Assembly (NCBI GenBank): GCA_019454045.1
Contig: SKCR01007813.1
Coordinates: forward strand, 248,001 to 312,000
Length of the DNA stretch: 64,000 bases
Direction: 5' to 3'
Source: Zanthoxylum bungeanum
Taxonomy: Eukaryota; Streptophyta; Magnoliopsida; Sapindales; Rutaceae
Translations under genes and position numbers: made by a program
Part shown: positions 7,260 through 47,556 of the stretch, in pieces
Layout: each line of letters opens with the position of its first letter
Position numbering within the stretch: position 1 is the stretch's first letter
The notes under the pieces: generated by a model
Databases searched by the model: none
Told to the model about the DNA's origin: nothing
Seen by the model: the letters and a program-made list of their open reading frames with translations, nothing else

Positions 7260-8480
7260 AAGCCCATTCCCCTCGGTGACTTCTCAACTTTCTCTCTAGG
7301 TAAACTTTTAATAAGTGGATCCGCTAGGTTTTCCTTCGATTTGACATAATCTATCGAAATTATGCCACTTGAGAGCAGTTATCGTATGGTATTATGTGTG
7401 CGACGTATGTGTTGAGACTTACTATTATACATTGTATTTTGGGCTCTCCCAATAGCCGATTGACTATCACAATATATGTTTATCACTAGCATTGGTTTGG
7501 GCCAATTTGGAATATCCTCTAGGAAATTTCGAAGCCATTCTGCTTCTTCTGCTGTTTTCTCTAATGTTATGAACTCAGATTCCATGGTAGACCGGGCAAT
7601 ACATGTTTTCCTCGAGGATTTCCATGACACGGTTGCACTACCAAGTGTGAAAATAAATCCACTCGTGGATTTAAAATCCATTATATCAGATATCTAGTTA
7701 GCATCGTTGTATCACTCGTGGATTTAGGATATATCGTATAATGCAGACCATATTTTGAAGTTTCTCTTAGATACCTCAAAACTCTTACTATGGTTTTCCA
7801 GTGGTTATGTCCTGGATTGCTCGTATATCTGCTAAGCCTGTTTACAGCTTGAGTGATATCAGGTCATGTGTAATTTATGAGATACATCAGACTTCCAATG
7901 ATTCTCGAATACTCTAATTGTGATACGCTTGAGCTACTATTCTTTGAAAAAAAAAAAGATTTAGGTCTATAGGAGTTCTAGCCACATTTAGATCTCTTTT
8001 ATTATATTTCTCAAGTATTTTCTCAATATATTGAGTCTGAGATAATATATACCCATCTGATGTTCTGGAAATCTTAATTCCTAAGATCACATCAGCTAAT
8101 CTTAAATCTTTCATATCAAATTTGTTGGTCAATACTTTCTTGGTAGATTGGATCATCTCAATATTACTACCAATTATCAGCATATCGTCTACGTAGAGAC
8201 ACACAATGACATACCCTTTTGAGTTGATTTAGTGTATACACACTTATCACACTCATTGATTTTGAACCCACTCCGTATAAGGATTTTACAAGTTTGCACA
8301 CCTTCTGTTCTTGTCCAGGAACATTAAAACCTTCAGGTTGCTCCATGTAAATCTCTTCATCCAGTTCACCAATTAGGAATGTCATCTTTACATACATTTG
8401 ATGTATTTCAAGACCAAATATAGCTGCTATGGCTATGAGCATTCTTATTGACGTGATACGAGTCATTGGTGAATAGGTAT
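7260..8480 (-). pseudogene. Ty1/copia pol, reverse transcriptase C-part and RNase H (left part)
   Basis: This is the 3' half of a decayed copia polyprotein. The minus strand reads, in order, reverse transcriptase from the YSPMTR segment (8480 downward), the EIYMEQPEGF and KVCKLVKSLYG motifs (8330-8270), the catalytic YVDD box (about 8190), the DVILGIKISRTSDGY segment, and RNase H with [19 protein letters not shown] and [12 protein letters not shown] (7640-7430). Several frame changes and stops separate these blocks, so it cannot encode a working protein. Translation runs straight on into 18280, where the KYYRQKEGLNYFD-T stretch completes the domain. The Athila-like element at 8481-18274 therefore split an already existing copia gene. 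Confidence 0.9.
8476..8480. repeat. TSD (left) of the Athila-like element: GGTAT
   Basis: GGTAT immediately before the LTR start TGATGAGC is repeated at 18275-18279 directly after the 3' LTR terminal CA. Confidence 0.9.
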
Positions 8481-10492
8481 TGATGAGCAAAAAATATATC
8501 AATATTTACCGCCCCTTTTACTTAATATTTTGTTTAGTTTCTCGGGTTTGATGAACGTTTTGATGTGTTTTAGTTTATTTTGCAGATAAAATAAAATTGG
8601 GACTCAATGAAATCAATTAGAATGAAATATGGGTCAAATAAGGGTAAAAATTGGACTTGACATATTAATTTTGGAGAATGGAAACTTGAAATGGCGTTCT
8701 AACGAAGTGCAGTTTCAGAAATTCTAATTTTGCGCAGCTGTCGTTGTTTGGGCATAACTTTTTATTCTGATATCGGATTGTGCTAATTCAAGTTCCAAAT
8801 TAAAGAAGACTCAAAGATCTACAACTTTGAAAAATAAAATAATTTCGAAATCTGAAGATTTCATGACCGAAATGGATGAAACATCCAGAAGTGTGTTATG
8901 TGTAATTATTAAAGTCATTTTCAAAGCAAAAAAATAAATAAATAATAAAAATATTTAAACTCCCACCAAACATGATAGCAATTAATAATAGATTTGGTGG
9001 AGTAATTAGTGGAGCAATTAATAATGGATTTGGTGGAGGCAAAATTTTGCCTATAAATACCAAATCATTTCATTTATAAATTCATATTTTCTTCTTTGAA
9101 ATTCCTTAAGAATAACTAATAAATTGTATATTATTTGTTTATTTACAACTTTCAGTAAATAATTTTCGCTTTTGCACTTTCTTTTCTTTACTTTTCAGTT
9201 TTTACTTTCCACAATTTACTTTTACGCACAGTACTTTCCTTTTTTTACTTTTTCAGTTTTTACTTTTCAAGCAATGAGGAGGTAACTCCCTCTTAATGGG
9301 GTAAAAGGTAAAGCTTTTATTATTGCTATTTAGATTAATCTCCCCTAATTATAATATAATAACTATTTAAAATCTGCCTTAACGAGGATACCGCCATATT
9401 GGTCGGTTGGTAATTAATTATAAATTGGTTTTAACCTGACTAAGCATGGATACCGCCTGGTTGGTCGGTTGGTAATTAATTATTAATTTGACTTAATCAT
9501 GATACTACATATATGGCTGGTTGGTAATTATCACATAAAATTAATATATTATATTAAGGGAGATATCTAAAATAGTAGTAATAAAAGTGAATCATTTTAC
9601 CTCAGTATTTTCTTTATTGTACTTTTACTTTATTTACTTTCAACATTTCTTTCTAGTAATTTACTTTCCAGTAATTTAATTTCCATCATTTACTTTTCAG
9701 TATTTAATTTCCAGCAATTTACTTTATGTCTTTTCTTTTATTTAAGTTTTCACTACCCGTAAATATGTGTCGTAACTAAGCCAGTTATATGGGGTTGTGA
9801 TGAAATCCAATATCACCGGTTTATAAGGGATTAAATTACAGTTTGGGTAATATAAAGGTTTATTTATTGAGTCTTAATCCTAATGTTTTTTATTAACTGG
9901 CCATTAATAAAATTGAACTGGTAAACTTAAAATGAACTTGGAAAATAGATTTTAGGTTAAAGACCTTAGACTCAATAGCCCACGATCTTCCTTGAGGATA
10001 GATAACCCTTTAATAGATTTCTTTACAGGATAGGAATATACATGTCGGGTGGGGGTAGCCATAATTGGAACTTAATCTTAATGAATTCAGATAACTTAGT
10101 TAACATAGGAATATGATTAATTGGGTTATACTGGGTATTTGTATTTGACCATCGGAAGAGGCTTTTACATAATTTCGTGTTCCAGGTTAATAAACCAATA
10201 TATTACACAAACGTAAAATAACCACTTCATCTTTTAAAACATATTGGAAGGATTCACAACCCTGGATAGTTTTATAAATTTGAATTTTCTTCAATCTACT
10301 TTCAAGCAATTTATTTACTTGTTTTAATTTTAAAGTCATCACCCAATCAAACAATCAATCCATTAGATACTTGTAAACATTTAACTTCATAAATTGATAA
10401 CAAAAAGTTTTAAGTCCTCATGGGATCGATACTTTTTATATTACTTGAACGATACGTGTGCTTGCGTTATACACGTGTGATTACGCCGGTCA
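8481..10492 (+). repeat. 5' LTR of the Athila-like element
   Basis: The LTR starts TGATGAGC and ends CGGTCA, with 2,012 bp. It is collinear along its full length with 16227-18274. A TATA box lies at 9052-9059. Downstream are tandem units with GGATACCGCC and GGTTGGTAATT at about 9380-9520. A conserved block with CCCACGATCTTCC near 9978 is shared by all LTRs of this group in the window. Confidence 0.92.
9052..9059 (+). promoter_or_regulatory. TATA box in the 5' LTR
   Basis: TATAAATA occurs about 570 bp into the LTR, after repeated ATTTGGTGGAG motifs. The same box is conserved at 16831-16838. It is a plausible core promoter for element transcription; this is inferred from position and conservation. 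Confidence 0.65.
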
Positions 10493-10498
10493 AGTTTT

Positions 10499-10516
10499 TG
10501 GCGCCGTTACCGGGGA
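10499..10516 (+). other. Primer-binding site, tRNA-Asp type
   Basis: TGGCGCCGTTACCGGGGA lies 6 nt after the 5' LTR and matches the complement of the plant tRNA-Asp 3' end with one mismatch. tRNA-Asp priming is typical of Athila-group elements. This fixes the 5' side and the orientation of the element. Confidence 0.9.
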
Positions 10517-10656
10517 CTTATTTATCTTTCACTATTAATTTTGAGGTTAGATACCTTTACTTGTATCTAATTTTCTTTTTACTTATTGCTTTTGTTTTCA
10601 CTTGTTTTAGGTTCTCAGACACTACATGAGATGAACCAGAAGCTTTGAAATTCGAC

Positions 10657-12480
10657 CGCTTGACCCAGAAATTGAAAGAACCATAAGACAATTAAGAAGG
10701 GAAAGACGAGAAGGCCAAGAAGCAATCGTTAATATGGAACCTGAACCGTTGGAAGTTGCACCACCAATTCCCATTCGAGGCATAACCGTTCTGGTGGTTG
10801 ACGGCTTTATTTCATGTATTGTACTTCCTCCATTACCAGCAAATGTGTGTGACATCAAAACATGCATTCAGATGATTCAGCAGTCAATACAGTTAGGGGG
10901 GAATGCAACTGAAGATCCTAATGCCCACATCAGCAACTTCCTGGAAGTTTGCGGCACTTTCAATTACAACAGAGCATCAGAAGAAGGAATGAGACAACGA
11001 GTTTTTCCATATTCCTTGAAAAACAGAGCAAAAGCTTGGCTACATTCACTATCAGCAGGTTACATCACAACTTGGAACACTCTAGCCACCAAATTCCTTG
11101 CAAAGTACTTTCCACCAGCCAGAACATCAAAGTTGAGGAATGACATCACATCCTTCGTGCAGCAAGATTCAGAATCCCTCTGCGAAGCTTGGGAAAGATT
11201 CAAAGATTTGCTCCGGAAATGTCTTCACCATGAGATTCCAAAGTGGCTTTAAGTCCAAACTTTCTATAATGGACTTTCTAGACTAATGAGAACCACAATT
11301 GATGTTGTTTCTGGAGGAGCTTTGATGGCAAAAGGAGAAGATCAAGCCTGGGACTTAATCGAAGAAATGGCTAACAATAATTCCTTGTTGCCAACAGATT
11401 GAAGCATGATCCAGAGAATTGCAGGAATATATGAAGTTGGAGCCAACTCAACAGTGAATACTAAGTTGGATCAGATTTGCAAATACCTAGAAACACTCAG
11501 CGCACAAGTTGTAAACATTACTGGAACCACAAGTTCACCATATGGAGGAGCACCAGAGCCAAACCAATATAAAGAAATGGTGAATTACGTCAATAATTTC
11601 AACAGACAGAGGAACGATCCCTATTCCAACACCTACAACCCAGGGTGGAGGAATCATCCTAATTTCGTATGGAACAACAATTCAGGGTAAATGAACAACC
11701 GACCACCCGAATTCCAACAGCAGAACAAAGGCTGGGAGCAGGCAAATGAAACAGGAATAGCAGAAGTGTTGACCCATTTGAAAAAGATAAAAGCAAAACA
11801 TGACTCTCAAGCAGCTAGGTATGATGTTTTGTTTCAATCCCATGCAGCATTAATTCAAAGTCAAACTGCTTCTATTAAAGCATTGGAGAATCAAATTGGA
11901 CAACTTGCCAATGCTCAGAGTTACAGACCGCCAGGTAACCGTCCTAGCAACACATAACCAAATCCAAGGAACATTGGGAAGGAGCAATGTTATGCCATCA
12001 TGTTAAAAAATAGCACTGAAATCAACAAAGATGTTGGAATCAAGGAAACTATTGAAGAAGTTCCAAAATATGCAGTTCCACATATGGAGGAAAAAGAAGA
12101 AAAGGAAAAAGATCAAGAAAGAATCATTTTACCTCCACATTTTCCTCAACGACTCCAGAAAAACAAATTGGATAAACAGTTTGCTCGATTATTGGAGGTT
12201 TTTAAAAAGCTGCATATCAACATCCCATTTGCAGAAGCCTTGGGAGAAATGCCCAGCTATGTCAAATTCATGAAAGACATTCTTTCACGAAAACGGAGAT
12301 TGGGAGATTACGAGACAGTAGCATTGACGGAAGAATGCAGTGCCATCATTCAGAGGAAACTTCCCCCAAAGTTGAAAGATCCTGGCAGTTTCACTGTTCT
12401 TTGCACCATATGAGAACATGACTTCGGTAAGGCTTTATGTGACTTAGGTGCAAGTGTTAACTTAATGCCTTTTTTATTTA
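10657..12480 (+). pseudogene. gag: gag and start of protease, Athila-like
   Basis: One reading frame from ATG 10734 is recognisable as a gag polyprotein but is broken by in-frame stops at 11250, 11400, 11688, 11955 and 12411. Upstream of 10734 the same frame reads DPEIERTIRQLRRERREG, and a one-base loss near 10655 separates it from a likely earlier start. The capsid-like core is at residues ~60-170 of the first block, with AKAWLHSL and the W...F...YFPP pattern of plant gag. The later blocks contain a Q/N-rich region (YNPGWRNHPNF) and a coiled-coil-like stretch (SIKALENQIGQLANAQ). The final block ends at the retropepsin start, where CDLGASVNLMP (about 12440-12472) replaces the usual DTG/DSG with DLG. 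The protein would form the particle shell; this copy cannot make it intact. Confidence 0.85.
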
Positions 12481-12505
12481 CGGGAAACTGCAGATTGGAG
12501 AAACA

Positions 12506-13315
12506 ATGCCTACCTCAGTCTCTCTACAACTTGCTGATAAAATGCTCGTATTTCCGAGAGGTGTAGTTGAAGATGTGCTGGTCAAGGTTGACAAATTTAT
12601 TTTCCCAGCAGATTTTATTGTCCTTGATATGGAGGAGGACGAAGATGTGCCGATCATCCTCGGGAGACCATTCTTGGCTATTGGTCGAACCATTATTGAT
12701 GTACATAAAAGAGAACTAACCATGAGGGTACAGGACCAAGAAGTAACATTCAATGTTTTCAAGGCCATGAATTTCCCAGATGATGAAAAGAATGAGGAAT
12801 GTTTCAGACTTGATGTGATAAATAGTATCATCCAGAACTCCAATGCAATGCAAAGTTCTACTGACAAACATAAAGCATGTCAATTACCTATGGAGCCAGA
12901 AGATAAAGCGTACCATGCACTGAAGAAGCCAATTCTTGCACTACAAGCTACAAAAGAGAAACAGTTCCACCAGTTCAACGAATTGGAGGAATTTCACATT
13001 CAGCCTTTTGAGAATGCCAAATTGTACAAAGAAAATGCCAAGAAGAGACATGATGAGAAGTTAGTGCGCATACAACTAAAACCAGGGCAGGGGGTACTGT
13101 TAAACAAGTCAAGCTTGAAACTCTTCCCATGGAAGCCAAAATCACGGTGGTCAGGTCCATTCTTAATCACCAAGGTTTTACTAGATAGAGTCGTTGAGTT
13201 ACATGATCCCGACTCCAACAAAACATTCAAGGTTAAAAACAAGCATGTCAAACACTACTGGGGAGAATCAATTGAGCAACAAAAAGAAAGTGTCACACTT
13301 TTAGATCCAGCATAA
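12506..13315 (+). pseudogene. Protease C-part fused to integrase C-terminal tail (pol with internal deletion)
   Basis: An open frame of 269 codons. Residues 1 to ~95 are the C-terminal half of an Athila-type retropepsin (DFIVLDMEEDEDVPIILGRPF, then GRTIIDVHKRELTMRV). From about residue 128 on (after 12890) it reads as the tail of an Athila integrase: NELEEFHIQPFENAKLYKE, KKRHDEKLVRIQLKPGQGVL, and LKLFPWKPKSRWSGPF near the end. Reverse transcriptase, RNase H and the zinc-binding and catalytic parts of integrase, normally about 3 kb, are missing between these halves, yet the frame stays open across the junction. A frameshift near 12480 separates it from the protease active-site segment upstream. 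Either a deletion happened to keep frame or the fusion is a stable family feature; only other copies can tell. Confidence 0.85.
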
Positions 13316-13400: not shown

Positions 13401-14003
13401 TTGGTGTGTTTTATTTTTGTGTGTTTAATTTGTATAGGTAAAATCAGATTTATGATGGAAGAAATTCTTGCAAATATTTACAAGCAATTTCCTTCTCTCC
13501 CTCAAAATTCTCTGATGAAAGTCTATAAATATCGCTTGGAACAAATGAGACTACTGATGATCAAAGGTATGCCTACTGACATTCGTTGGATTATTGAAGC
13601 ACGGGTCCGATTGGCAGGTGAGTCCTCTAACTCTTTTATTTCACATATTCCTAGTTTAGGAAGAAGCACATATGCTAAAAAGAGAAGAGCCAAAAGAATG
13701 TGTGTTTGTTATAAATGTGCTCGTATATTTTGTGATACTCATTGTCGATCTTTAGGAATTGTGTCTGATAACCGCGAAGATAAGATTAATTTCATTAGAG
13801 ATGGCTTGAGTAAGGAGTCTTTGGATGAAATATCTAAAACTCTTGATACGCATCCCAGTGGATATGTGTATCACGAAATTCTCATGTTATATGCACAATT
13901 CCGTAAAGAAAGACAACAGTTAAGTCTCGGGAATCTGACTCTAAAAGACCATGTTTGCCAATTTATAAGAAAATTTGATGAGAAGCTTGTCCCTGACGCA
14001 TAG
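13401..14003 (+). CDS. Unrecognised 200-residue protein with Cys cluster, carried by the Athila-like element
   Basis: I do not recognise this protein. It is intact: one open frame ending TAG at 14001. The more likely start is the double ATG at 13452/13455 (residues 18-19), because residues 1-17 overlap a T-rich stretch with an acceptor-like TATAG. Visible features are a helical, charged N-part (EEILANIYKQF...YKYRLEQMRLLM), a basic patch KKRRAKR at 93-99 that could be a nuclear signal, and a Cys cluster C101-x-C103-x2-C106-x4-C111-x3-C115 with H114, suggesting metal binding. A Leu-rich C-part contains LSLGNLTLKDHVCQF. It sits where Athila elements keep an env-like ORF, but I see no signal peptide or transmembrane segment in the likely form. 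It could be a second captured host gene or an element-specific accessory protein. Confidence 0.6.
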   Translation: MVCFIFVCLICIGKIRFMMEEILANIYKQFPSLPQNSLMKVYKYRLEQMRLLMIKGMPTDIRWIIEARVRLAGESSNSFISHIPSLGRSTYAKKRRAKRMCVCYKCARIFCDTHCRSLGIVSDNREDKINFIRDGLSKESLDEISKTLDTHPSGYVYHEILMLYAQFRKERQQLSLGNLTLKDHVCQFIRKFDEKLVPDA

Positions 14004-14233
14004 ACGTCATTCAAGCCGTTACATTATTGTAAATATTATATCTCTTTGTCTTTTCCTAATAATTGTGATTTTTTTATTTTCTCCGATAGGATCCAGGCTA
14101 CTTTTTGACCTTTCATGATTTACTATTTTGCTATTAATCGTCATTTGGAAGATACTTGTGCTATTATTACTCACCCTTTTCAGGTTCTATAAATTCAACT
14201 CATCATTGCACCTTTGAAGGCATCCAGATAAAA
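14004..14233 (+). other. Spacer between the unknown ORF and the LOG-like cDNA
   Basis: A 230-bp AT-rich spacer with two pyrimidine-rich tracts ending in AG (CTCCGATAG|GA near 14088 and CCCTTTTCAG|GT near 14184) just ahead of the LOG start. They resemble plant splice acceptors and could allow spliced subgenomic expression; no transcript evidence is available here. Confidence 0.35.
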
Positions 14234-14887
14234 ATGGAAGCTACTTCAAGAAGACGGGTTGAAAACATCTGTGTTTTTTGCGGTACCAGTGTTGGTGTTA
14301 AACCAGAATACGTAACAGCAGCACACGAATTGGGTCGAGTCATTGCTGCAAGGAATATGCACTTAGTATATGGCGGTGGCAATCTTGGACTAATGGGGAT
14401 CGTTTCAAAGGCTGTATAGGATAGAGGCAGTCAAGTCTTAGGAATCATCCCAAAACCCTTGGCAGAGGCGAATCTTATTGGATCATCAAACAGCAAGGAA
14501 CTAATCGTGCCAGGTATGTCTGAACGACTGGTAGAGATGATTAACAGTGTTGATGCTTTTATTGCTTTGCCATGAGGCTTGGGCACGATAGAGGAAATTT
14601 TTACAGTATTATCTTGGGCAAACTTGAACATACACCAGAAACCGCTTGGACTGTACAATGTTGATGGATTTTATGATTTTCTTTGTGTGTTTCTTGATGA
14701 TGCCTGGAGAAATGGGTTCGTGTCAAAGCCTGTAAAAGAACTCCTCTTTACTGCCAGAACTGTCCCAGATTTAATTGACCAAATCTTAGCCTTTGAACCT
14801 CAAATTGACCTCATTCTTTCCAAGATAAACTGGTTTGATAATGATTGTGGTAAGAGGCATCGGATAAATCTGGATCTTAATCTTTAA
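14234..14887 (+). pseudogene. LOG-like: Captured LONELY GUY (LOG)-type cytokinin nucleotide phosphoribohydrolase, intronless
   Basis: LOG enzymes release free-base cytokinin from its riboside 5'-monophosphate in one step, in cytosol and nucleus. From ATG 14234 one frame of 217 codons runs to TAA 14885. Family motifs are NICVFCGTS (11-19), YGGGNLGLMG (46-55), the VLGIIPKPL segment (68-76), PGMSERLVEM with R98, and P-x-GLGTIEE (113-121), where E121 matches the catalytic Glu of the PGGxGTxxE motif. WANLNIHQKPLGLYNVDGF follows. There are no introns, whereas plant LOG genes usually have several, so the source was probably a spliced transcript. Two nonsense changes break it: TAG at codon 62 (14417, probably from CAG) and TGA at codon 114 (14573, from a Gly codon of PGG). 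No frameshifts occur. The C-terminal tail ends LDLNL. It lies between pol and the polypurine tract, inside both LTRs. Confidence 0.9.
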
Positions 14888-16212
14888 CTTTTCATTTAGA
14901 TGTAGAATTTCAGCTAACCAGGTACGGTTTTCTAAACTCTTCTTCTACTGTTTAAGACATTGGGGACAATGTCTCATTTAGGTTTGGGGAAGGAGAATAT
15001 TTAAATTGTATCTTGTTTTTATTGTTTTATTTTTAGTCAAAATTTTTGAAAAAAAATCAAAAAAACAAAATTAGAAATTTTACAAAAATTAAAAAAATAT
15101 ATTTTAATTTTGTGATTTTAATTTTATTAATCAGGTGAAATTTGTGTGAGATAGTTGTGTAAGGAATTTCCACTCCTGAGACGTATCTCAACCTATTTCG
15201 AAACAAGTTAATTTTTGTTTATTTCCTTTTGAATTATTTAATTTGTGAATTCTCCATAAAATAACTAAAATGGATCTTCATATGCTCAGTTGACAGATAT
15301 TATCAATATGCATGGTAACATACGGACATGAGATGTAATTGAAAAGTTTGTAATATTCAGTGCTCCAGTTTAATTGGAGGAAGCACCTAAAAAAGCGATG
15401 GGATTAAAAAAAACGTCCTAGATCCGAGTTATTAAGTCTGTAAGGGTGTTTTAACACCTAGTGACCTAAAACCAACTGGTTTGGGAGTCATTGGCCCAAC
15501 ACTCGTTACATGGATCGAAGATGTTGGAAAAAAAAAATACATTTATATTGGAAATCTGAGTAATTAAGTCTTTAGGGGTGTCTTAACACCTATTGCCCTA
15601 AAGCCAACTAGTTTAGGAGTCACTGACCCAAAGCTCGTTACATGGATGGAAGATATTGTATATAAATAAAAAAAATCAAAAATCAAGAAAACAAAAATCA
15701 AAAATCAAAAAAAAAATCAGAAAAATTATTCCATTGCTACAAAAAGGTGTGAATTCTTATAAAACTTTAGAATAAAAATATTACTCTCTTCTCAACTGCA
15801 CTTGTGACTATTGTGGGTAAAATGAGTTGATTAATATTTTGTTAGCTGTGTATATGAAGAATGGTAAAAATAATCGGAGAATTTACTTATTTGGTAATTT
15901 AGAAAGAAAGAAAACAACTAGTAACTTGGATAAGAAGTTTCACATGTTTAGTCACTAAATTCTTTATTCTCTTTTCTCGTCTTTTTTCTTTTGTATGCAT
16001 TAGTTTTATTATCTTTTTACTTTTGTAAAACATTTTTGGGTATCGTTGCTGTAAGCCCTCATGAGACTACAACTCGTCCATTAGGGACACCTAGGGTTTA
16101 AAGGCTTGTTGCATACGCTAAATGCAACCGTGATCCCTGTGAAAGTGGCTTAGATTAATTTTAATTGTTTCTTGTATTTAATTTTATTATTTTGCTCGAG
16201 GACTAGCAAAAT
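14888..16212 (+). other. 3' noncoding region of the Athila-like element
   Basis: No coding region is visible. A purine-rich, PPT-like tract with AGGTTTGGGGAAGGAGA lies at 14982-14998. Two copies of a roughly 110-bp segment occur at about 15421-15530 and 15553-15660 (period 132), each holding a GAGT-ATTAAGTC stretch and ending CTCGTTACATGGAT. A/T-rich runs fill 15040-15120 and 15660-15730. Confidence 0.7.
15421..15660 (+). repeat. Two diverged direct repeats, period 132 bp
   Basis: The unit beginning GAGTTATTAAGTCTGTAAGG (15426) recurs as GAGTAATTAAGTCTTTAGG (15558). Both continue with a TTAACACCTA block and end with CTCGTTACATGGAT. Confidence 0.8.
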
Positions 16213-16226
16213 GTAAGGTTTGGGGG
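16213..16226 (+). other. Polypurine tract
   Basis: GTAAGGTTTGGGGG precedes the 3' LTR directly and is the expected plus-strand primer site. The boundary follows from alignment with the 5' LTR start at 8481. Confidence 0.8.
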
Positions 16227-18274
16227 AGATGAGCGGAAAATATATCAATATTTACCGCCCATTTTACATAATATTTTGTTTAGTTTCTCAGGTTTGATGA
16301 ATGTTTTGATGTGTTTTAGTTTATTTTGCAGATAAAATAATATTGGGACTCAATAAAGTCATTTAAGATGAAATGTGGGTCAAATAAGGGCAAAAATTGG
16401 ACTTGACATGTTAATTTTGGAGATTGGAAACTTGAAAGGGCGTTCTAACGAAGTGATGTTTCGGAAATTCCAATTTTACGCAACTGTAGTATTTTGGAAA
16501 TTCCAATTTTAACTTTATATTCCGATATCAGATTAAGCTGATGAAGGTTCCAGATTAAAGAAGACTCAAAGATCTACAACTTTGAAGAACAAAATAATTT
16601 TGAATTCTGAAGATTTCATGACCGAAATTGATGAAACATCCAGAAGTGTGTTATGTGTAATTATTAAAGTCATTTTCAAAGTAAATAAATAAATAAAAAA
16701 TAAAAATAGTCAAACTCCCACCAAATATGATAGCAATTAATAATAGATTTGGTGGAGTAATTAGTGGAGTAATTAATAATGGATTTGGTGGAGCATTTAA
16801 TAATGGATTTGGTGGAGGTAAAATTTTGCCTATAAATACCAAGTCATTTCATTTGTAAATTCATACTTTCTTCTTTGAAATTCCTTAAGAATAACTAAGA
16901 AGATTGTATCTTGTTTGTTTATTTACAGCTTTCAGTAATTAATTTTCGCTTTTGCACTTTCTTTTCTTTACTTTTCAGTTTTTACTTTCCACAATTTACT
17001 TTTACGCACAGTACTTTCCTTTCTTCACTTTTTCAGTTTTTACTTTTAAAGCAATGAGGAGGTAACTCCCCCTTGCTGGGGTAAAAGGTAAAGATGTTAT
17101 TATTGCTATTTAGATTAATCTCCCCTAATTATAATATAATAACTATTTAAAATCTGACTTAACGAGGATACCGCCATATTGGTCGGTTGGTAATTAATTA
17201 TAAATTGGTTTTAACCTGACTAAGCATGGATACCGCCTGGTTGGTCGGTTGATAATTAATTATTAATTTGACTTAATCAGGATACCGCCTATATGGCTGG
17301 TTGGTAATTATCACGCAAAGTTAATATATTATATTATGGGAGATATCTAAAATAGTAGTAATAAAAGTGGATCATTTTACCTCAGCATTTTCTTTATTGT
17401 ACTTTTACTTTATTTACTTTCAGCATTTCTTTTCCAGTAATTTACTTTCCAGTAATGTAATTTCCATCATTTACTTTTTAGTATTTAATTTCCAGCAATT
17501 TACTTTATGTCTTTTCTTTTATTTAAGTTTTTACTACCCGTAAATATGTGTCGTAACTAAGCCAGTTATCTGGGGTTGTGATGAAATCCAATATCACCGA
17601 TTTATAAGGGGTTAAATTACAGTTTGGGTAATATAAAGGTTTATTTATTGAGCCTTAATTCTAATGCTTTTTATTAACTGGTCATTAATAAAATTAAACT
17701 GGTAAACTTAAAATGAACTTGGAAAAGAGATTTTAGGTTAAAAACCTTAGACTCAATAGCCCACGATCTTCCTTGAGGATAGATAACCTTTTAATAGATT
17801 TCCTTACAGGAGAGGAATATACCTGTCGGGCGGAGGTAGCCATAATTGGAAGTTAATCTTAATGAATTCAGATAACTTGGTTAACATAGGAATATGATTA
17901 ATTGGGTTATACTGGGTATTTGTATTTGACCATCGGAAGAGGCTTTTACATAATTTCGTGTTCCAGGTTAATAAATAAATATATTACACAAACGTAAAAT
18001 AATCATTTCATCTTTTAAAAAGATATTGGAAGGATTCACAACCCTGGATAGTTTTATAAATTTGAATTTTCTTCAATCTACTTTCAAGCAATTTATTTAC
18101 TTCTTTTAATTTTAAAGTCTTCACCCAATCAAACAATAAATCCATTAGATACTTGTAAACATTTAACTTCATAAATTGATAACAAAAGGTTTTAAGTCCT
18201 CGTGGGATCGATACTTTTTATACTACTTGAACGATACGTGCGCTTGTATTATACGCGTGTGATTACGTCGGTCA
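16227..18274 (+). repeat. 3' LTR of the Athila-like element
   Basis: Collinear with 8481-10492. The first base reads A rather than T (AGATGAGC versus TGATGAGC). It ends GTCGGTCA at 18274, followed by the GGTAT duplication. It has one extra unit with GGATTTGGTGGAGCATTTAA at about 16776-16805 compared with the 5' LTR, plus scattered substitutions. The two LTRs have therefore diverged visibly since insertion. Confidence 0.92.
16831..16838 (+). promoter_or_regulatory. TATA box in the 3' LTR
   Basis: TATAAATA, at the same position relative to the LTR as 9052-9059. Confidence 0.6.
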
Positions 18275-18279
18275 GGTAT
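18275..18279. repeat. TSD (right) of the Athila-like element: GGTAT
   Basis: Perfect match to 8476-8480. Confidence 0.9.
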
Positions 18280-20574
18280 CAAAGTAATTAAGGCCTTCTT
18301 TTTGTCTATAATATTTTATGACAAGTCTTGTCTTGTACTTATCTATTTATTCATCCAGTTTCATCTTCCGTTTGAATATCCATTTGTAGCCCAGTGGCTT
18401 ACAACCTGTAGGAAGATCAACCAACTCTCAAGTATAGTTTTGTAGGATGGAATCAATCTCACTATTGATAGTCTCTTTCCACAAAGGTGCCTCCGACGAA
18501 GACATTGTTTCTTTATAGCTTTGAGGCTCATTTTCTAACAAGTATGTCATAAAATTGGGTCCAAATGACTTAGACGTTCTAGCTCTTTTGCTACATCTAG
18601 GTGCAATTTCCTCAATATTTTCTTGTTGATGTGATTCTTGGTCAACTTGATCACTGCCTTTAACAGTATCAATAGTTCTTTTGAGAGACTATGTTCCTTG
18701 TTTTCCTTACAATGAAATGTCTCTTCAAAGAATGTCGCATTCCTTGACTCATTATCGTATTTAGATTGATGTCAGGAATTTCAGGCTTATATACCAAGAA
18801 TCGATACGCACTATTATTTTGAGCATATCCAATGAATATACAATCAACAGTCTTGGTCATATTCTAACCTTTTTAGGTTTAGGAACCATCACTTTGGTGA
18901 GACACCCCCACACTTTCAGATATTTGTAAGAAGGTATGTGACCTTTCCACAATTCATATGGTGCCTTGTCCAATCTTGAGTGAGGTAGCTTGTTCAGAAC
19001 ATAGTTGGCGGAAAGCAAAGCTTCTCCCCCACAAGTTCTAGGGTAAATCAGAGTTTTTCAACATGACATTTATCATTTTCTTCAATGTTCGATTTTTGTG
19101 CTCAGCAATCCCATTTTGTTGAGGCGAATAAGGAGCAGTAGTTTCGTGAATAATTCCATGATTGGAACAATATTCACCAAATGGTGACACATATTCACCT
19201 CATCTATCACTCCTGATTCTTTTGATTTTCTTGCCAAGTTGATTTTCAACTTCGTTATTATAGTGTATAAAGCTCTCAATAGCTTCATCTTTGCTCCTCA
19301 GCAAATACACATGATAGAATCTTGTGCTATCATTGATAAAAGTGACAAAGTACTCACCGCCTCTTGTTTGCACAATATTCATATCACACACATCGGAGTG
19401 TACAAGTTTCAATGGTTCAGAACTTCATTCTATGGAATGAAATAATGTCATATGCATTTTTGCTTCAACACATGCCTCACATTTATGTTGGTTATCAATT
19501 GTAAATTTAGGTATAAGGTCTATGTTAATTAATTTACGCATTGTATCATATATTTTGTGACTCAATAATATAAGCAGAAGATGTAGCTTTATTACTAGCA
19601 TTGTGTCGATTGAAAACCATTACATTGAACTTGAAAAGGCCCTCAATGAGGTATCATTTTCCTACAAAGACATTATTTTTTGTCAATACAAACTTATCAG
19701 AAACAAATACAAGCTTAAAACCATTATTGCTAAGGAGTGAACCTGAAACCAAGTTCTTCCGAATATCAGGAACATGCAAGGCATTCTTCAATGTAAGCTC
19801 TTTCTCAAATGTCATCTTCAGAACCATTGTGCCTTGTCCAACCACTCTAGAGGTAAAGGAGTTTCCCATTGTCAGATGATCACCACCACCGACCTTCTGA
19901 TACGAGCAAAATATCTTGCTATTAGCACATATATGACGAGTAGCCCCAGTGTCGACCCATCATTCTCTCGGATTTCCAACCAAGTTGGCTTCTGTTACAA
20001 CTATTGAGAGGTTCATCTCTGAGATCTCATTAATTAGTTGCTCATCCTCAGTGACATGGGCCTCATTTTTCTTTTTCTTGCCTTTGTCCTACGACTTCTT
20101 ATTTCTGCAGTCCTTTGCCATGTGATCATTTTTTCCACAGATGTAGCACTTCTCCTTGAACTTCTTGTTTGCTTGGGAAGAATCAGCTCCACCGTTCTTT
20201 CTCTTTTTACGACCCTTTCCACCCTCGACGATGTTGGCCTTAGACTCCATAATCTTGTAGCTAGCCTTCTCAGACTTCTTGTTGTCCTCTTCGATCCTCA
20301 ATCGAACTCCAAGGTCTTCAAGACTCATCTGTTTTTTTTATTTTCAGATAGCTCCTGAAGTCTTTCCATGATGGAGGCAACTTTTCAATGATTATGGCAA
20401 CTTGAAACCTCTAGTAGAGTTTCATTCCCTCATCTAATATTTCATGAATGATTGACTGAAGTTCACCCAACTGAGACATCACCGTCCTTGAATCTACCAT
20501 CTTGTAGTCCAGGAACCTATCCACGATAAATTTATTTTGTCTGGCATCCTTGGTTTTATACATCTTCTCGAAAG
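18280..20574 (-). pseudogene. Ty1/copia gag C-part, protease, integrase and RT N-part
   Basis: Second piece of the copia split at 8480. The minus strand, from 20574 down, reads the gag middle (FIVDRFLDYKMVDS), a zinc knuckle CYICGKNDHMAKDC (about 20145-20105), the protease/linker region ending [20 protein letters not shown] (19790-19730), and integrase with LVHSDVCDMN and YFVTFINDSTRFYHVYLL (19410-19300), then RSDR. The IFIGYAQNNSAYRFLVYKP segment (18840-18770) and the RT start follow. Frame changes and stops are frequent. It is interrupted again at 20574, where gag continues at 24583 beyond a solo LTR. Its closest relative in the window is the remnant at 61556-63849. Confidence 0.9.
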
Positions 20575-45352: not shown

Positions 45353-47556
45353 TGATGAGTGGTAAATCTATCACTATTTCCCACTCATTTAACCTAATAT
45401 TTTGTATAGTTTCTTGAGTTTTGTGAATATTTTGATGTGTTTTGTGTTATTTTATAGATAAATAAAGTTTCAGGACATTCTGGAGGTGATTTGGAGCAAA
45501 ACAGTGAAAATTAGAAAAATGGGCATTTTGGTAATTTGGGCGCGTCGCGACGCGCAAGCCTTTGGCGTCGCGACGCCTAACGTGCACCAAGTCCATGCTA
45601 ACATGCGCTGGGTCAACGGGTCAGAATTTGAAAAGTTTGACTTTGCTAACGTGCGTCGTTCCACGTGTCACCATCACAGCTGATCTGCTAACATGCGCCG
45701 TGCCACGTGTCATCATCATACGGTACCGAAAGTCGCCATCGCCATGTGTCACTCCACGTTATTGCCACGTCATCATACACATCATCAGTTGACCGAGTCA
45801 ACGTGCCACCTCACCACCACGTCATCATCAGCCAATCACGAAGTGCCACGTGTCAAAATTCTATGGTGCCGACAGTCACTTTGCCACGTGTCGCCACGTC
45901 AGCGCCACGTCAGCATCAATTATTGGCTCTCTTATCCGAAATTGACACATGGCGGATAAGAATCTAAGCCGACCAATCAGAAGCCGCCACGTGTCACAAT
46001 AATTGAGCTCCAACCACCTTGCCTCGTGTCACCTTATCACCTTATCCAGAATCGCCACGTGTCATCACCTCAGCATGCCACGACCAAAGAAGCTGGCGTC
46101 GCGACCCCTAGAGCCCACCGAGGCCCATAAATTGAGCTCGAGATTTCAGTTTCAGTTGTACCATTCTCTCTCAGTTCTTTGATGTAAATATGGAGTCTTC
46201 TCTATAGTTTCTTTTAATTTAAGTTTTGTAATTTAATTTTAATTACGTTCTGTAATAATAGTAATTTACTTTCTTTATTTTTACAATTTTTACTATTCAA
46301 CCATGAGGAGGTAACTTCCCTCTGCTAAGGTGAAAGGTAATTCTTTTACTATTACTATTTAGATTAATCTCCTTAAAAATAATATATTCACTATTTAAAA
46401 TTTGAATTAAAAATGATACCGTCATATTGGTCGGTTGGTAATTCATTTTAATCTGGTTTAAACCTGACTAACCAAGGATACCACCAGATTGGTCGGTAGG
46501 TAATTTAATTTTGGTTCCGCCTTTATGGCTGGTTTATTTTGGTTTCGCCTTTATGGCTGGATTATGGACAAATATTACCGCCTTAATGGCTGATTGGACT
46601 TAATTTGACTTAATCAGTTTACCGTCTATATGGCTGGTTGGTAATATTATCACAAGTTTATATATTATTTTATGGGAGATATCTAAAATAGTAAATAGTA
46701 AAAGTAATTCATTTTACCTTAGCATTTCATTTTATTTTATTTTACTTTTCAATTTCTACTTTATCGCATTTTACTTTTGGCATTTTTACTTTATGTCTTT
46801 TATTTTACTAGCCCTAGTTATGTGTTGTAACTAAATTAGTTATCTAGGGTTTTGATGAAATCCAATATCACCGGTTTATAAGGGGTTAAATTATAGTTTG
46901 GGTAATATAAAGATTTATTTATTGAGTCTTAATCTTAATGCTTTTTATTAACTGGCCACTAATAAAATTGACTAGGTAAACTTAAAATGAACTAGACATA
47001 GGAATTTTAAGTTTAAGACCTTAGACTCAATAGCCCACGATCTTCCTTAAGGATAGAATACCCTTTAATAGATTTCCTTACAGGATATGAATATACCTGT
47101 CGGGCGGGGGTAGCCAAATTGGAACTTAATCTTAATAAATCTAGGTAATTTGGTTGATATAGACATATGGTTCAATTGAATTATACTAGGTATTTGTAAT
47201 TGACCATCGGAAGAGGCTTTTACATAATTTAGTGTTCCAGGTTAATAAATCAATATTTTACCCAACTTTAAGATAACCACTCCATCTTTAAATAATATTG
47301 GAAGAAATCACAACCCTAGATAATTTTTAATATTGAATTTTCTTAAAACCTACTTTCGAACAATTTTATTTACTTTTTTTTTTTAAATTTAGAATCGTCA
47401 CCATTTCAAATCAATCAAATAACTTGTTAGATTCTAGTAATCATTTGACCTCATAAAATTAATAGATAAGGTTTTAAGTCCTCGTGGGATCGATATTTTT
47501 TATACTACTTGAACGATACATGCGCTTGTGTTATACGCGTGTGTTTACGCCGGTCA
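45353..47556 (+). mobile_element. Athila-like solo LTR in array unit B, TSD ATATC
   Basis: Starts TGATGAGTGG and ends CGCCGGTCA, 2,204 bp. ATATC is duplicated at 45348-45352 and 47557-47561. The uninterrupted site is seen in unit A near 42590 (ATATCTATGATAG). Its 3' half is collinear with 1-1279, 8481-10492 and 16227-18274, but its 5' half differs: it holds two GCGTCGCGACGC palindromes and a dense set of CACGTG boxes. No internal region is present. Confidence 0.92.
45661..46064 (+). promoter_or_regulatory. Array of G-box (CACGTG) motifs in the LTR promoter region
   Basis: CACGTG occurs at 45662, 45704, 45847, 45885, 45988 and 46056, mostly within the ten-mer CCACGTGTCA, with further CCACGTCA and CCACGTTA elements between them. 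G-box/ACGT cores bind plant bZIP and bHLH factors such as ABA- and light-response regulators. They lie upstream of a CATAAATTG box at about 46129 and the inferred transcription start. The regulatory role is inferred. Confidence 0.6.

What the first reader, a model, noticed from the sequence alone, without database searches (positions are those of the whole stretch)
14234..14887. LTR retrotransposon carrying a captured cytokinin-activation (LOG) gene
An intronless 217-codon LOG-like sequence with recognisable family motifs, including the conserved Arg (98) and Glu (121), lies between pol and the polypurine tract of an Athila-like element bounded by LTRs and a 5-bp TSD. The absence of introns points to capture of a spliced mRNA during reverse transcription. 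LOG is the direct activation step for cytokinin, so copies driven by an LTR could alter hormone dosage or produce small RNAs against host LOG genes. Only two nonsense changes and no frameshift are present, while the adjacent gag has five in-frame stops and at least two frameshifts. That suggests later acquisition or longer constraint than gag.
Basis: partly seen in the sequence, partly recalled or inferred. Interest (0 to 1): 0.92.

Follow-up and report, generated by a model that had tools for sequence, protein, structure and literature searches.

The report
Retrotransposon carrying virus-like and hormone genes
A plant jumping element carries two borrowed genes side by side, one related to plant-virus proteins that can block RNA silencing and one related to the plant enzyme that switches on the hormone cytokinin; both look kept by selection among related copies, although the hormone gene in this copy is broken.

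Summary
In detail: a 217-codon intronless LOG frame with two stops (14234-14887) lies inside a Ty3/gypsy, Athila-type element with LTRs 8481-10492 and 16227-18274 and target duplication GGTAT. The interpretation changes in three ways. (1) The capture is ancient: retrotransposon-type LOGs form one clade in several plants, and LOG in such elements is already in print (Citrus, Populus). (2) The intact ORF just upstream (13452-14003) is a homologue of the flexivirus nucleic-acid-binding / cysteine-rich protein, an RNA-silencing suppressor in some carlaviruses (Pfam Viral_NABP: window and 24 of 24 relatives scanned). My paper searches found no report of it in retrotransposons. (3) The two are a conserved pair: in the window's 3.96-Gb genome a LOG match follows NABP in 43 of 44 copies examined. 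Both evolve under constraint (pN/pS 0.44 and 0.36; neutral simulations 0.72 and 0.76). The stops do not show longer constraint than gag; one is shared by 8 of 32 readable copies. Best reading: an accessory module acting in trans, an anti-silencing or regulatory zinc-finger protein plus local cytokinin activation. Neither activity was tested, and this copy's LOG is broken.

The parts
8476..8480 (.). left copy of target-site duplication GGTAT
8481..10492 (+). 5' LTR (TGATGAG...GGTCA)
   Evidence: same ends as the solo LTR
10499..10517 (+). primer-binding-site-like TGGCGCCGTTACCGGGGAC (tRNA-Asp type by recall)
   Evidence: print; tRNA type not tested
10635..12413 (+). gag region, one frame with five stops; Pfam Retrotrans_gag 3.3e-19 in 10635-11249
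12461..13315 (+). protease remainder (RVP_2, below Pfam cut-off) followed by integrase C-terminus; RT, RNase H and integrase core absent
13429..13437 (+). 3'-splice-site-like ...TTTGTATAG just upstream of NABP (function inferred)
   Evidence: 40 of 44 copies by a loose pattern
13452..14003 (+). intact 183-aa ORF, homologue of flexivirus nucleic-acid-binding (cysteine-rich) protein: basic patch plus C-x2-C-x4-C-x3-C
14172..14183 (+). 3'-splice-site-like CACCCTTTTCAG upstream of LOG (function inferred)
   Evidence: 35 of 36 spacers
14234..14887 (+). LOG (cytokinin riboside 5'-monophosphate phosphoribohydrolase) frame, two stops
14957..14971 (+). ACATTGGGGACAATG motif; found after NABP in L002 and, by pattern, in 25 of 44 genome copies
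15422..15669 (+). two tandem 116-bp repeats in the 3' noncoding part
16215..16226 (+). polypurine tract AAGGTTTGGGGG next to the 3' LTR
16227..18274 (+). 3' LTR
18275..18279 (.). right copy of target-site duplication GGTAT

Best explanation
This is a decayed, non-autonomous member of an Athila-type LTR-retrotransposon group that carries a conserved two-gene accessory module, NABP then LOG, between integrase and the polypurine tract. Shown here: the anatomy, the pairing in 43 of 44 examined copies of the same genome, fused gene models of both in other plants, the homology of each protein, and purifying selection on both. Inferred: each gene is translated from a spliced sub-genomic mRNA of the LTR promoter. 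NABP binds nucleic acid and dampens host RNA silencing or host transcription, as some of its virus relatives do. LOG frees active cytokinin from its nucleotide in the expressing cell and keeps that cell dividing, which favours copies that reach the germ line. The products act in trans, so elements with a dead LOG or no pol can still spread. LOG came from a spliced plant LOG mRNA, and NABP shares ancestry with flexivirus proteins; the direction of that transfer is open.
For: Pfam Viral_NABP in 25 of 25 and Carla_C4 in 23 of 25 proteins (window and 24 relatives). Integrase-NABP-LOG order; integrase-NABP in L002 and in the Rhamnella model P0233; NABP-LOG fused models in Orobanche (P0206, P0229) and Rhamnella (P0228). 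Selection: pN/pS in frame 0.44 (NABP, 42 gap-free copies) and 0.36 (LOG, 17) against simple star-shaped neutral simulations 0.72 (sd 0.09) and 0.76 (sd 0.06) and out-of-frame 0.72-1.09; dN/dS falls with pair depth from 0.52 to 0.28 (NABP; 7 pairs in the last bin) and from 0.60 to 0.28 (LOG), with 0.38 in the deepest LOG bin. R98 and E121 both kept in 82 of 92 full-length LOG relatives. Acceptor-like sites: 40 of 44 before NABP against 24% in shuffles, 35 of 36 before LOG. Silencing suppression by virus relatives: PMC3689765 (passages), PMC12172455 (abstract).
Against: No expression, splicing or activity was tested. Most retro-LOGs replaced K99 (kept in 8 of 92) and H96 (H in 15 of 92) of the MHxRK motif, so the enzyme may be altered. 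NABP cysteine spacing (x2-x4-x3) differs from that printed for a carlavirus (x2-x9-x4), and the finger pattern is whole in only 33 of 44 genome copies, 105 of 120 listed hits and 77 of 120. The fold comparison was not significant. A stop in the LOG catalytic motif is present in 8 of 32 readable copies, so LOG is not needed in cis. CVB p12, a carlavirus relative, did not suppress local silencing (PMC3689765 passage); CYVCV CRP suppressed single-stranded but not double-stranded triggers (PMC12172455 abstract). A stricter acceptor pattern taken from the window matched 1 of 44 copies.
Confidence: 0.45

Rival explanations
1. Passenger module: both genes were captured long ago; NABP has a role in the element's own life cycle (RNA chaperone, packaging, nuclear export), and LOG is a tolerated passenger with no hormone effect.
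For: The codon-114 stop is in 8 of 32 readable copies; K99 is lost in 84 of 92 LOG relatives; L002 and L024 carry NABP without a LOG in the stretch held.
Against: LOG pN/pS 0.36 in frame, below all 40 neutral simulations (lowest 0.66); R98 and E121 both kept in 82 of 92; full-length LOG frames of this type occur in several plants.
Confidence: 0.3
2. Recent capture by this one element of a host LOG mRNA, with LTR-driven overexpression.
For: Intronless frame inside LTRs.
Against: A LOG match in the same place in 43 of 44 copies, in a deep multi-species clade apart from two Arabidopsis LOGs (support 93/92); this copy is broken.
Confidence: 0.03
3. Chance nested insertion of a LOG pseudogene.
For: None found.
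Against: Conserved position, match starting 214-288 bp after NABP in 43 of 44 copies.
Confidence: 0.01
4. The NABP resemblance is convergence of a basic patch plus cysteine finger, with no shared ancestry with flexivirus proteins.
For: Different cysteine spacing; no significant fold match; no PDB or NCBIfam relative.
Against: About 110 aligned residues at E 1.7e-9 in the window protein, and a match in 25 of 25 proteins scanned; ranks 1 and 3 of nine weak structure hits are named RNA silencing suppressor (not significant).
Confidence: 0.1

Closest known systems
Ty3/gypsy elements with a LOG-family (YgdH) extra domain in Citrus and Populus (PMC9289625 section 12, citing Steinbauerova et al.; Athila lineage and LOGL4 by recall)
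   Same: LOG-family ORF in Ty3/gypsy elements of flowering plants
   Different: The main text of PMC9289625 has no occurrence of 'nucleic acid binding' or 'carlavirus': no NABP, no pairing
Carlavirus / mandarivirus cysteine-rich nucleic-acid-binding protein (Pfam PF05515, PF01623)
   Same: Basic patch followed by a cysteine finger; profile match over about 110 residues
   Different: About 183 aa, finger C-x2-C-x4-C-x3-C, lies in a retrotransposon
Plant LOG enzymes (At2g37210, At5g11950)
   Same: Catalytic Arg and PGGxGTxxE motif; length about 216 aa
   Different: No introns; K99 and H96 mostly replaced; separate clade
Phalaenopsis Ty3/gypsy with AlkB RNA demethylase (PMC9289625)
   Same: Plant Ty3/gypsy element with an extra RNA-directed protein, shown active in vitro there (abstract)
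   Different: Unrelated domain; found only in Phalaenopsis in that screen
Sunflower Tekay elements with a conserved 5' extra ORF (PMC11728184, passages)
   Same: Extra retrotransposon ORF proposed there to modulate RNA silencing
   Different: 5' of gag, chromovirus lineage, structural likeness to DRBM proteins, not a viral NABP relative

Membership tests
LTR retrotransposon, Ty3/gypsy, Athila lineage | LTRs, 5-bp TSD, PBS, PPT | tested here: met
   (PBS by position and likeness only)
LTR retrotransposon, Ty3/gypsy, Athila lineage | domain order protease-RT-integrase in relatives | tested here: met
   L054: RVP_2 (below cut-off), RVT_1, H2C2 in order; L002: H2C2, rve
LTR retrotransposon, Ty3/gypsy, Athila lineage | no additional RNase H (which marks Tat, PMC6317226) | tested here: inconclusive
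   No RNase H family hit in L002 104-1591 besides H2C2 and rve; no RT phylogeny made
Flexivirus NABP / CRP | profile match above Pfam gathering score | tested here: met
   Window protein 38.4 bits against 23, and 26.0 against 20.9
Flexivirus NABP / CRP | carlavirus finger spacing C-x2-C-x9-C-x4-C as printed for PVH | tested here: not met
   C-x2-C-x4-C-x3-C in 33 of 44 genome copies, 105 of 120 hits and 77 of 120
Flexivirus NABP / CRP | silencing suppression | not testable with these tools
   -
LOG phosphoribohydrolase | catalytic Arg and PGGxGTxxE | tested here: met
   82 of 92 full-length relatives keep R98 and E121, 72 the whole motif tested; 14 of 17 gap-free genome copies keep R98 and E121; in the window the motif is interrupted by a stop
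LOG phosphoribohydrolase | MHxRK motif | tested here: not met
   K99 in 8 of 92; S at 96 in 68 of 92
LOG phosphoribohydrolase | enzyme activity | not testable with these tools
   -

The most novel reading that the evidence does not exclude
A widespread plant retrotransposon group carries a selected two-gene host-manipulation module, a flexivirus-type silencing suppressor plus a cytokinin-activating enzyme, comparable to the strategies of gall-forming pathogens and RNA viruses; plant viruses and retrotransposons have exchanged a silencing-suppressor gene.
Probability: 0.35. Interest if true: 0.9.

Novelty: new variant of a known kind. Interest (0 to 1): 0.7.

Why it matters
How LTR elements evade RNA silencing, and whether they manipulate host physiology, is open. 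Here is a high-copy group that carries, next to each other, a relative of a viral silencing suppressor and a hormone-activating enzyme, both under selection; each activity can be tested with one standard assay. It also points to gene exchange between retrotransposons and RNA viruses, and warns that proteins named as host LOG (for example Populus 'LOGL10') or as 'viral nucleic acid binding' may be retrotransposon genes.

Tried and rejected
Nested-insertion and recent-capture readings were rejected on copy evidence. The stop-count argument was rejected by expectation and by the shared stop. Viral-contig scans with NABP (none) and LOG (one 33% locus, L001, not pursued) led nowhere. Plasmid and phage searches: no match. 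dN/dS of the integrase C-terminus against L002: dS saturated. A search of the own genome for LOG did not complete, so the number of LOGs outside elements and the host donor gene are unknown. The paper by Steinbauerova et al. was not held; its abstract is recalled, and what I cite comes from PMC9289625 section 12. The supplementary chart of PMC9289625, which may list rarer domains, could not be read.

Full report
The frame at 14234-14887 is a LOG-family reading frame of 217 codons with stops at codons 62 and 114 and no frameshift. The open pieces before and after the stops hit LOG-type Pfam families, the nearest solved structure by sequence is Arabidopsis At2g37210, and 389 database proteins match at E <= 0.001 (120 listed). 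The NCBIfam LOG equivalog is hit by both pieces, below its whole-protein cut-off.

It lies inside an LTR element. The LTRs run 8481-10492 and 16227-18274; the target duplication is GGTAT; the target is a copia element on the minus strand whose reverse-transcriptase frame is interrupted. A solo LTR of the same family at 45353-47556 with duplication ATATC confirms the LTR ends. LTR divergence (K2P 0.062) gives 2.4-4.4 million years under rates of 1.3e-8 and 7e-9 (the rates are recalled values). gag has five stops in one frame, and the next frame goes from protease straight to the integrase C-terminus, so this copy has no RT, RNase H or integrase core.

Upstream of LOG, 13452-14003 is an intact 183-codon ORF. 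It matches Pfam Viral_NABP (1.7e-9) and Carla_C4 (9e-6); of 25 proteins scanned (window and 24 relatives) 25 and 23 match. The NABP of L002 is just under the Carla_C4 cut-off (20.8 against 20.9). A search gave 183 relatives at E <= 0.01, with Xanthoceras, Acer, Populus, Rhamnella and Orobanche named among the 120 listed; a second with the core alone gave 676 at E <= 10 (120 listed), Parasponia among them. No virus protein is named in either listing. Three gene models fuse NABP with LOG (P0206, P0228, P0229) and one fuses integrase with NABP (P0233). L002, a fragment that reads like plant retrotransposon in a bacterial MAG record, has integrase, then an intact NABP, then the ACATTG.GGACAATG motif with no LOG between them. 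NABP without LOG therefore exists, by loss or because LOG came later.

In the window's own genome (3.96 Gb) the NABP query had 57,900 first-look candidates, of which 150 were scored and all 150 matched. I examined 44 of these 150 places: the window copy, 3 further best loci (L008-L010), 20 listed without stops (L011-L030) and 20 listed with stops (L031-L050). A LOG match follows NABP on the same strand, starting 214-288 bp after it, in 43 of 44 (39 with at least 150 residues; L017 has only 20); the exception, L024, has integrase and NABP but no LOG in the stretch held. The integrase C-terminus precedes NABP in 41 of 44 and the integrase core in 11. Upstream of L024's NABP, L054 holds protease-like (below cut-off), RT and H2C2 matches. 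In 20 of the 44 copies a polypurine tract and LTR start are readable downstream (counted by eye). The module is thus shared by pol-bearing and pol-deleted subfamilies.

Selection. In-frame pooled pN/pS is 0.44 for NABP (42 gap-free copies) and 0.36 for LOG (17 gap-free copies); shifted frames give 0.82-0.93 and 0.72-1.09, and star-shaped neutral simulations with the LTR transition bias give 0.72 (sd 0.09, lowest 0.58) and 0.76 (sd 0.06, lowest 0.66), 40 runs each. The ratio falls with pair depth (NABP, 44 copies: 0.52, 0.34, 0.28, the last with 7 pairs; LOG, 20 copies: 0.60, 0.32, 0.28, then 0.38 in the deepest 23 pairs), as expected when live lineages are constrained and dead copies drift. 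The pairs are not independent, so no P value is claimed. NABP of the window against L002: NG86 dN 0.25, dS 1.13. LOG copies differ more than NABP copies (mean 0.106 against 0.070 per base in 17 copies; Mantel r 0.49, none of 5000 permutations as high); part of this may come from choosing copies by NABP similarity.

The codon-114 TGA occurs in 8 of 32 copies readable there by a pattern, this copy included, and the codon-62 TAG in 2 of 17. Elements with a dead LOG therefore multiplied, which fits action in trans or dispensability.

LOG trees put 61 of 61 retro-type proteins (SH-aLRT 91; the first 60 suitable hits and the window) and 38 of 38 (93/92) apart from two Arabidopsis LOGs. Only two host LOGs were available, so the donor lineage is not identified. 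Of 92 full-length relatives among the 120 listed, R98 and E121 are both kept in 82, but K99 in only 8 and H96 in 15. In the window genome R98 and E121 are both kept in 14 of 17 gap-free copies.

Expression is inferred. A loose pyrimidine-rich acceptor pattern, chosen after looking at the sequences, occurs within 40 nt of the NABP start in 40 of 44 copies (24% in shuffles); a stricter pattern taken from the window matched 1 of 44. A Y-rich CAG lies within 120 nt of LOG in 35 of 36 spacers (no shuffle control). These copies are related, so the counts are not independent.

Literature. PMC9289625 (section 12 read) reports the YgdH/LOG domain in LTR elements of Citrus and Populus in line with Steinbauerova et al.; its main text has no occurrence of carlavirus or nucleic acid binding. 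PMC6317226 (passages) counted extra ORFs of at least 250 codons, so both ORFs here fall under its limit. PMC7264820 (passages) has no mention of LOG. PMC3136472 (passages) reports flexivirus replicase-like, not NABP-like, sequence in cucumber. PMC11728184 (passages) proposes silencing modulation by an unrelated Tekay ORF. Searches for NABP in retrotransposons listed no paper describing it; one search listed 12 of 420, none with the phrase 'viral nucleic acid binding', and the two papers concern glyoxalases. Only open-licence PMC papers were searched. Viral CRPs: PMC3689765 (passages) and PMC12172455 (abstract and one section) report silencing suppression; CVB p12 did not suppress local silencing and is said there to act in plant transcription (passage cut off at that point).

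Fold comparison of an 88-sequence model (pLDDT 74, pTM 0.33) found nothing significant; of nine weak hits, ranks 1 and 3 are entries named RNA silencing suppressor, from Grapevine Kizil Sapak virus and Fig latent virus 1 (E 0.59 and 1.4; both flexiviruses by recall).

Verdict: a real feature. LOG in such elements is known; the conserved pairing with a flexivirus-type NABP, and the selection on both, is what is new here as far as these searches reach. The mechanism remains an inference.

Noticed in passing
45353-47556: Solo LTR of the same family with target duplication ATATC; another LTR fragment lies at about 22-1280.
   Followed up: partly
L002 1-3330: A fragment that reads like plant retrotransposon sits in a bacterial MAG record (Candidatus Nomurabacteria, DAIEQH010000041.1), probably contamination; a C. 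difficile record (P0310) holds a similar NABP piece.
   Followed up: partly
P0043, P0048, P0070 (database proteins): Populus proteins named LOGL10 fall in the retrotransposon-type LOG clade, so host LOG family counts may include retrotransposon genes; their genomic context was not seen.
   Followed up: partly
15422-15669: Two tandem 116-bp repeats in the 3' noncoding part of the element.
   Followed up: no
7379-8475 and 18280-20337, minus strand: A copia element split by this insertion.
   Followed up: partly
L008: A LOG only 58% identical to P0001 lies beside a NABP of the window's type; it has two stops and a long branch within the same clade, so it is either strongly decayed or exchanged.
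   Followed up: partly
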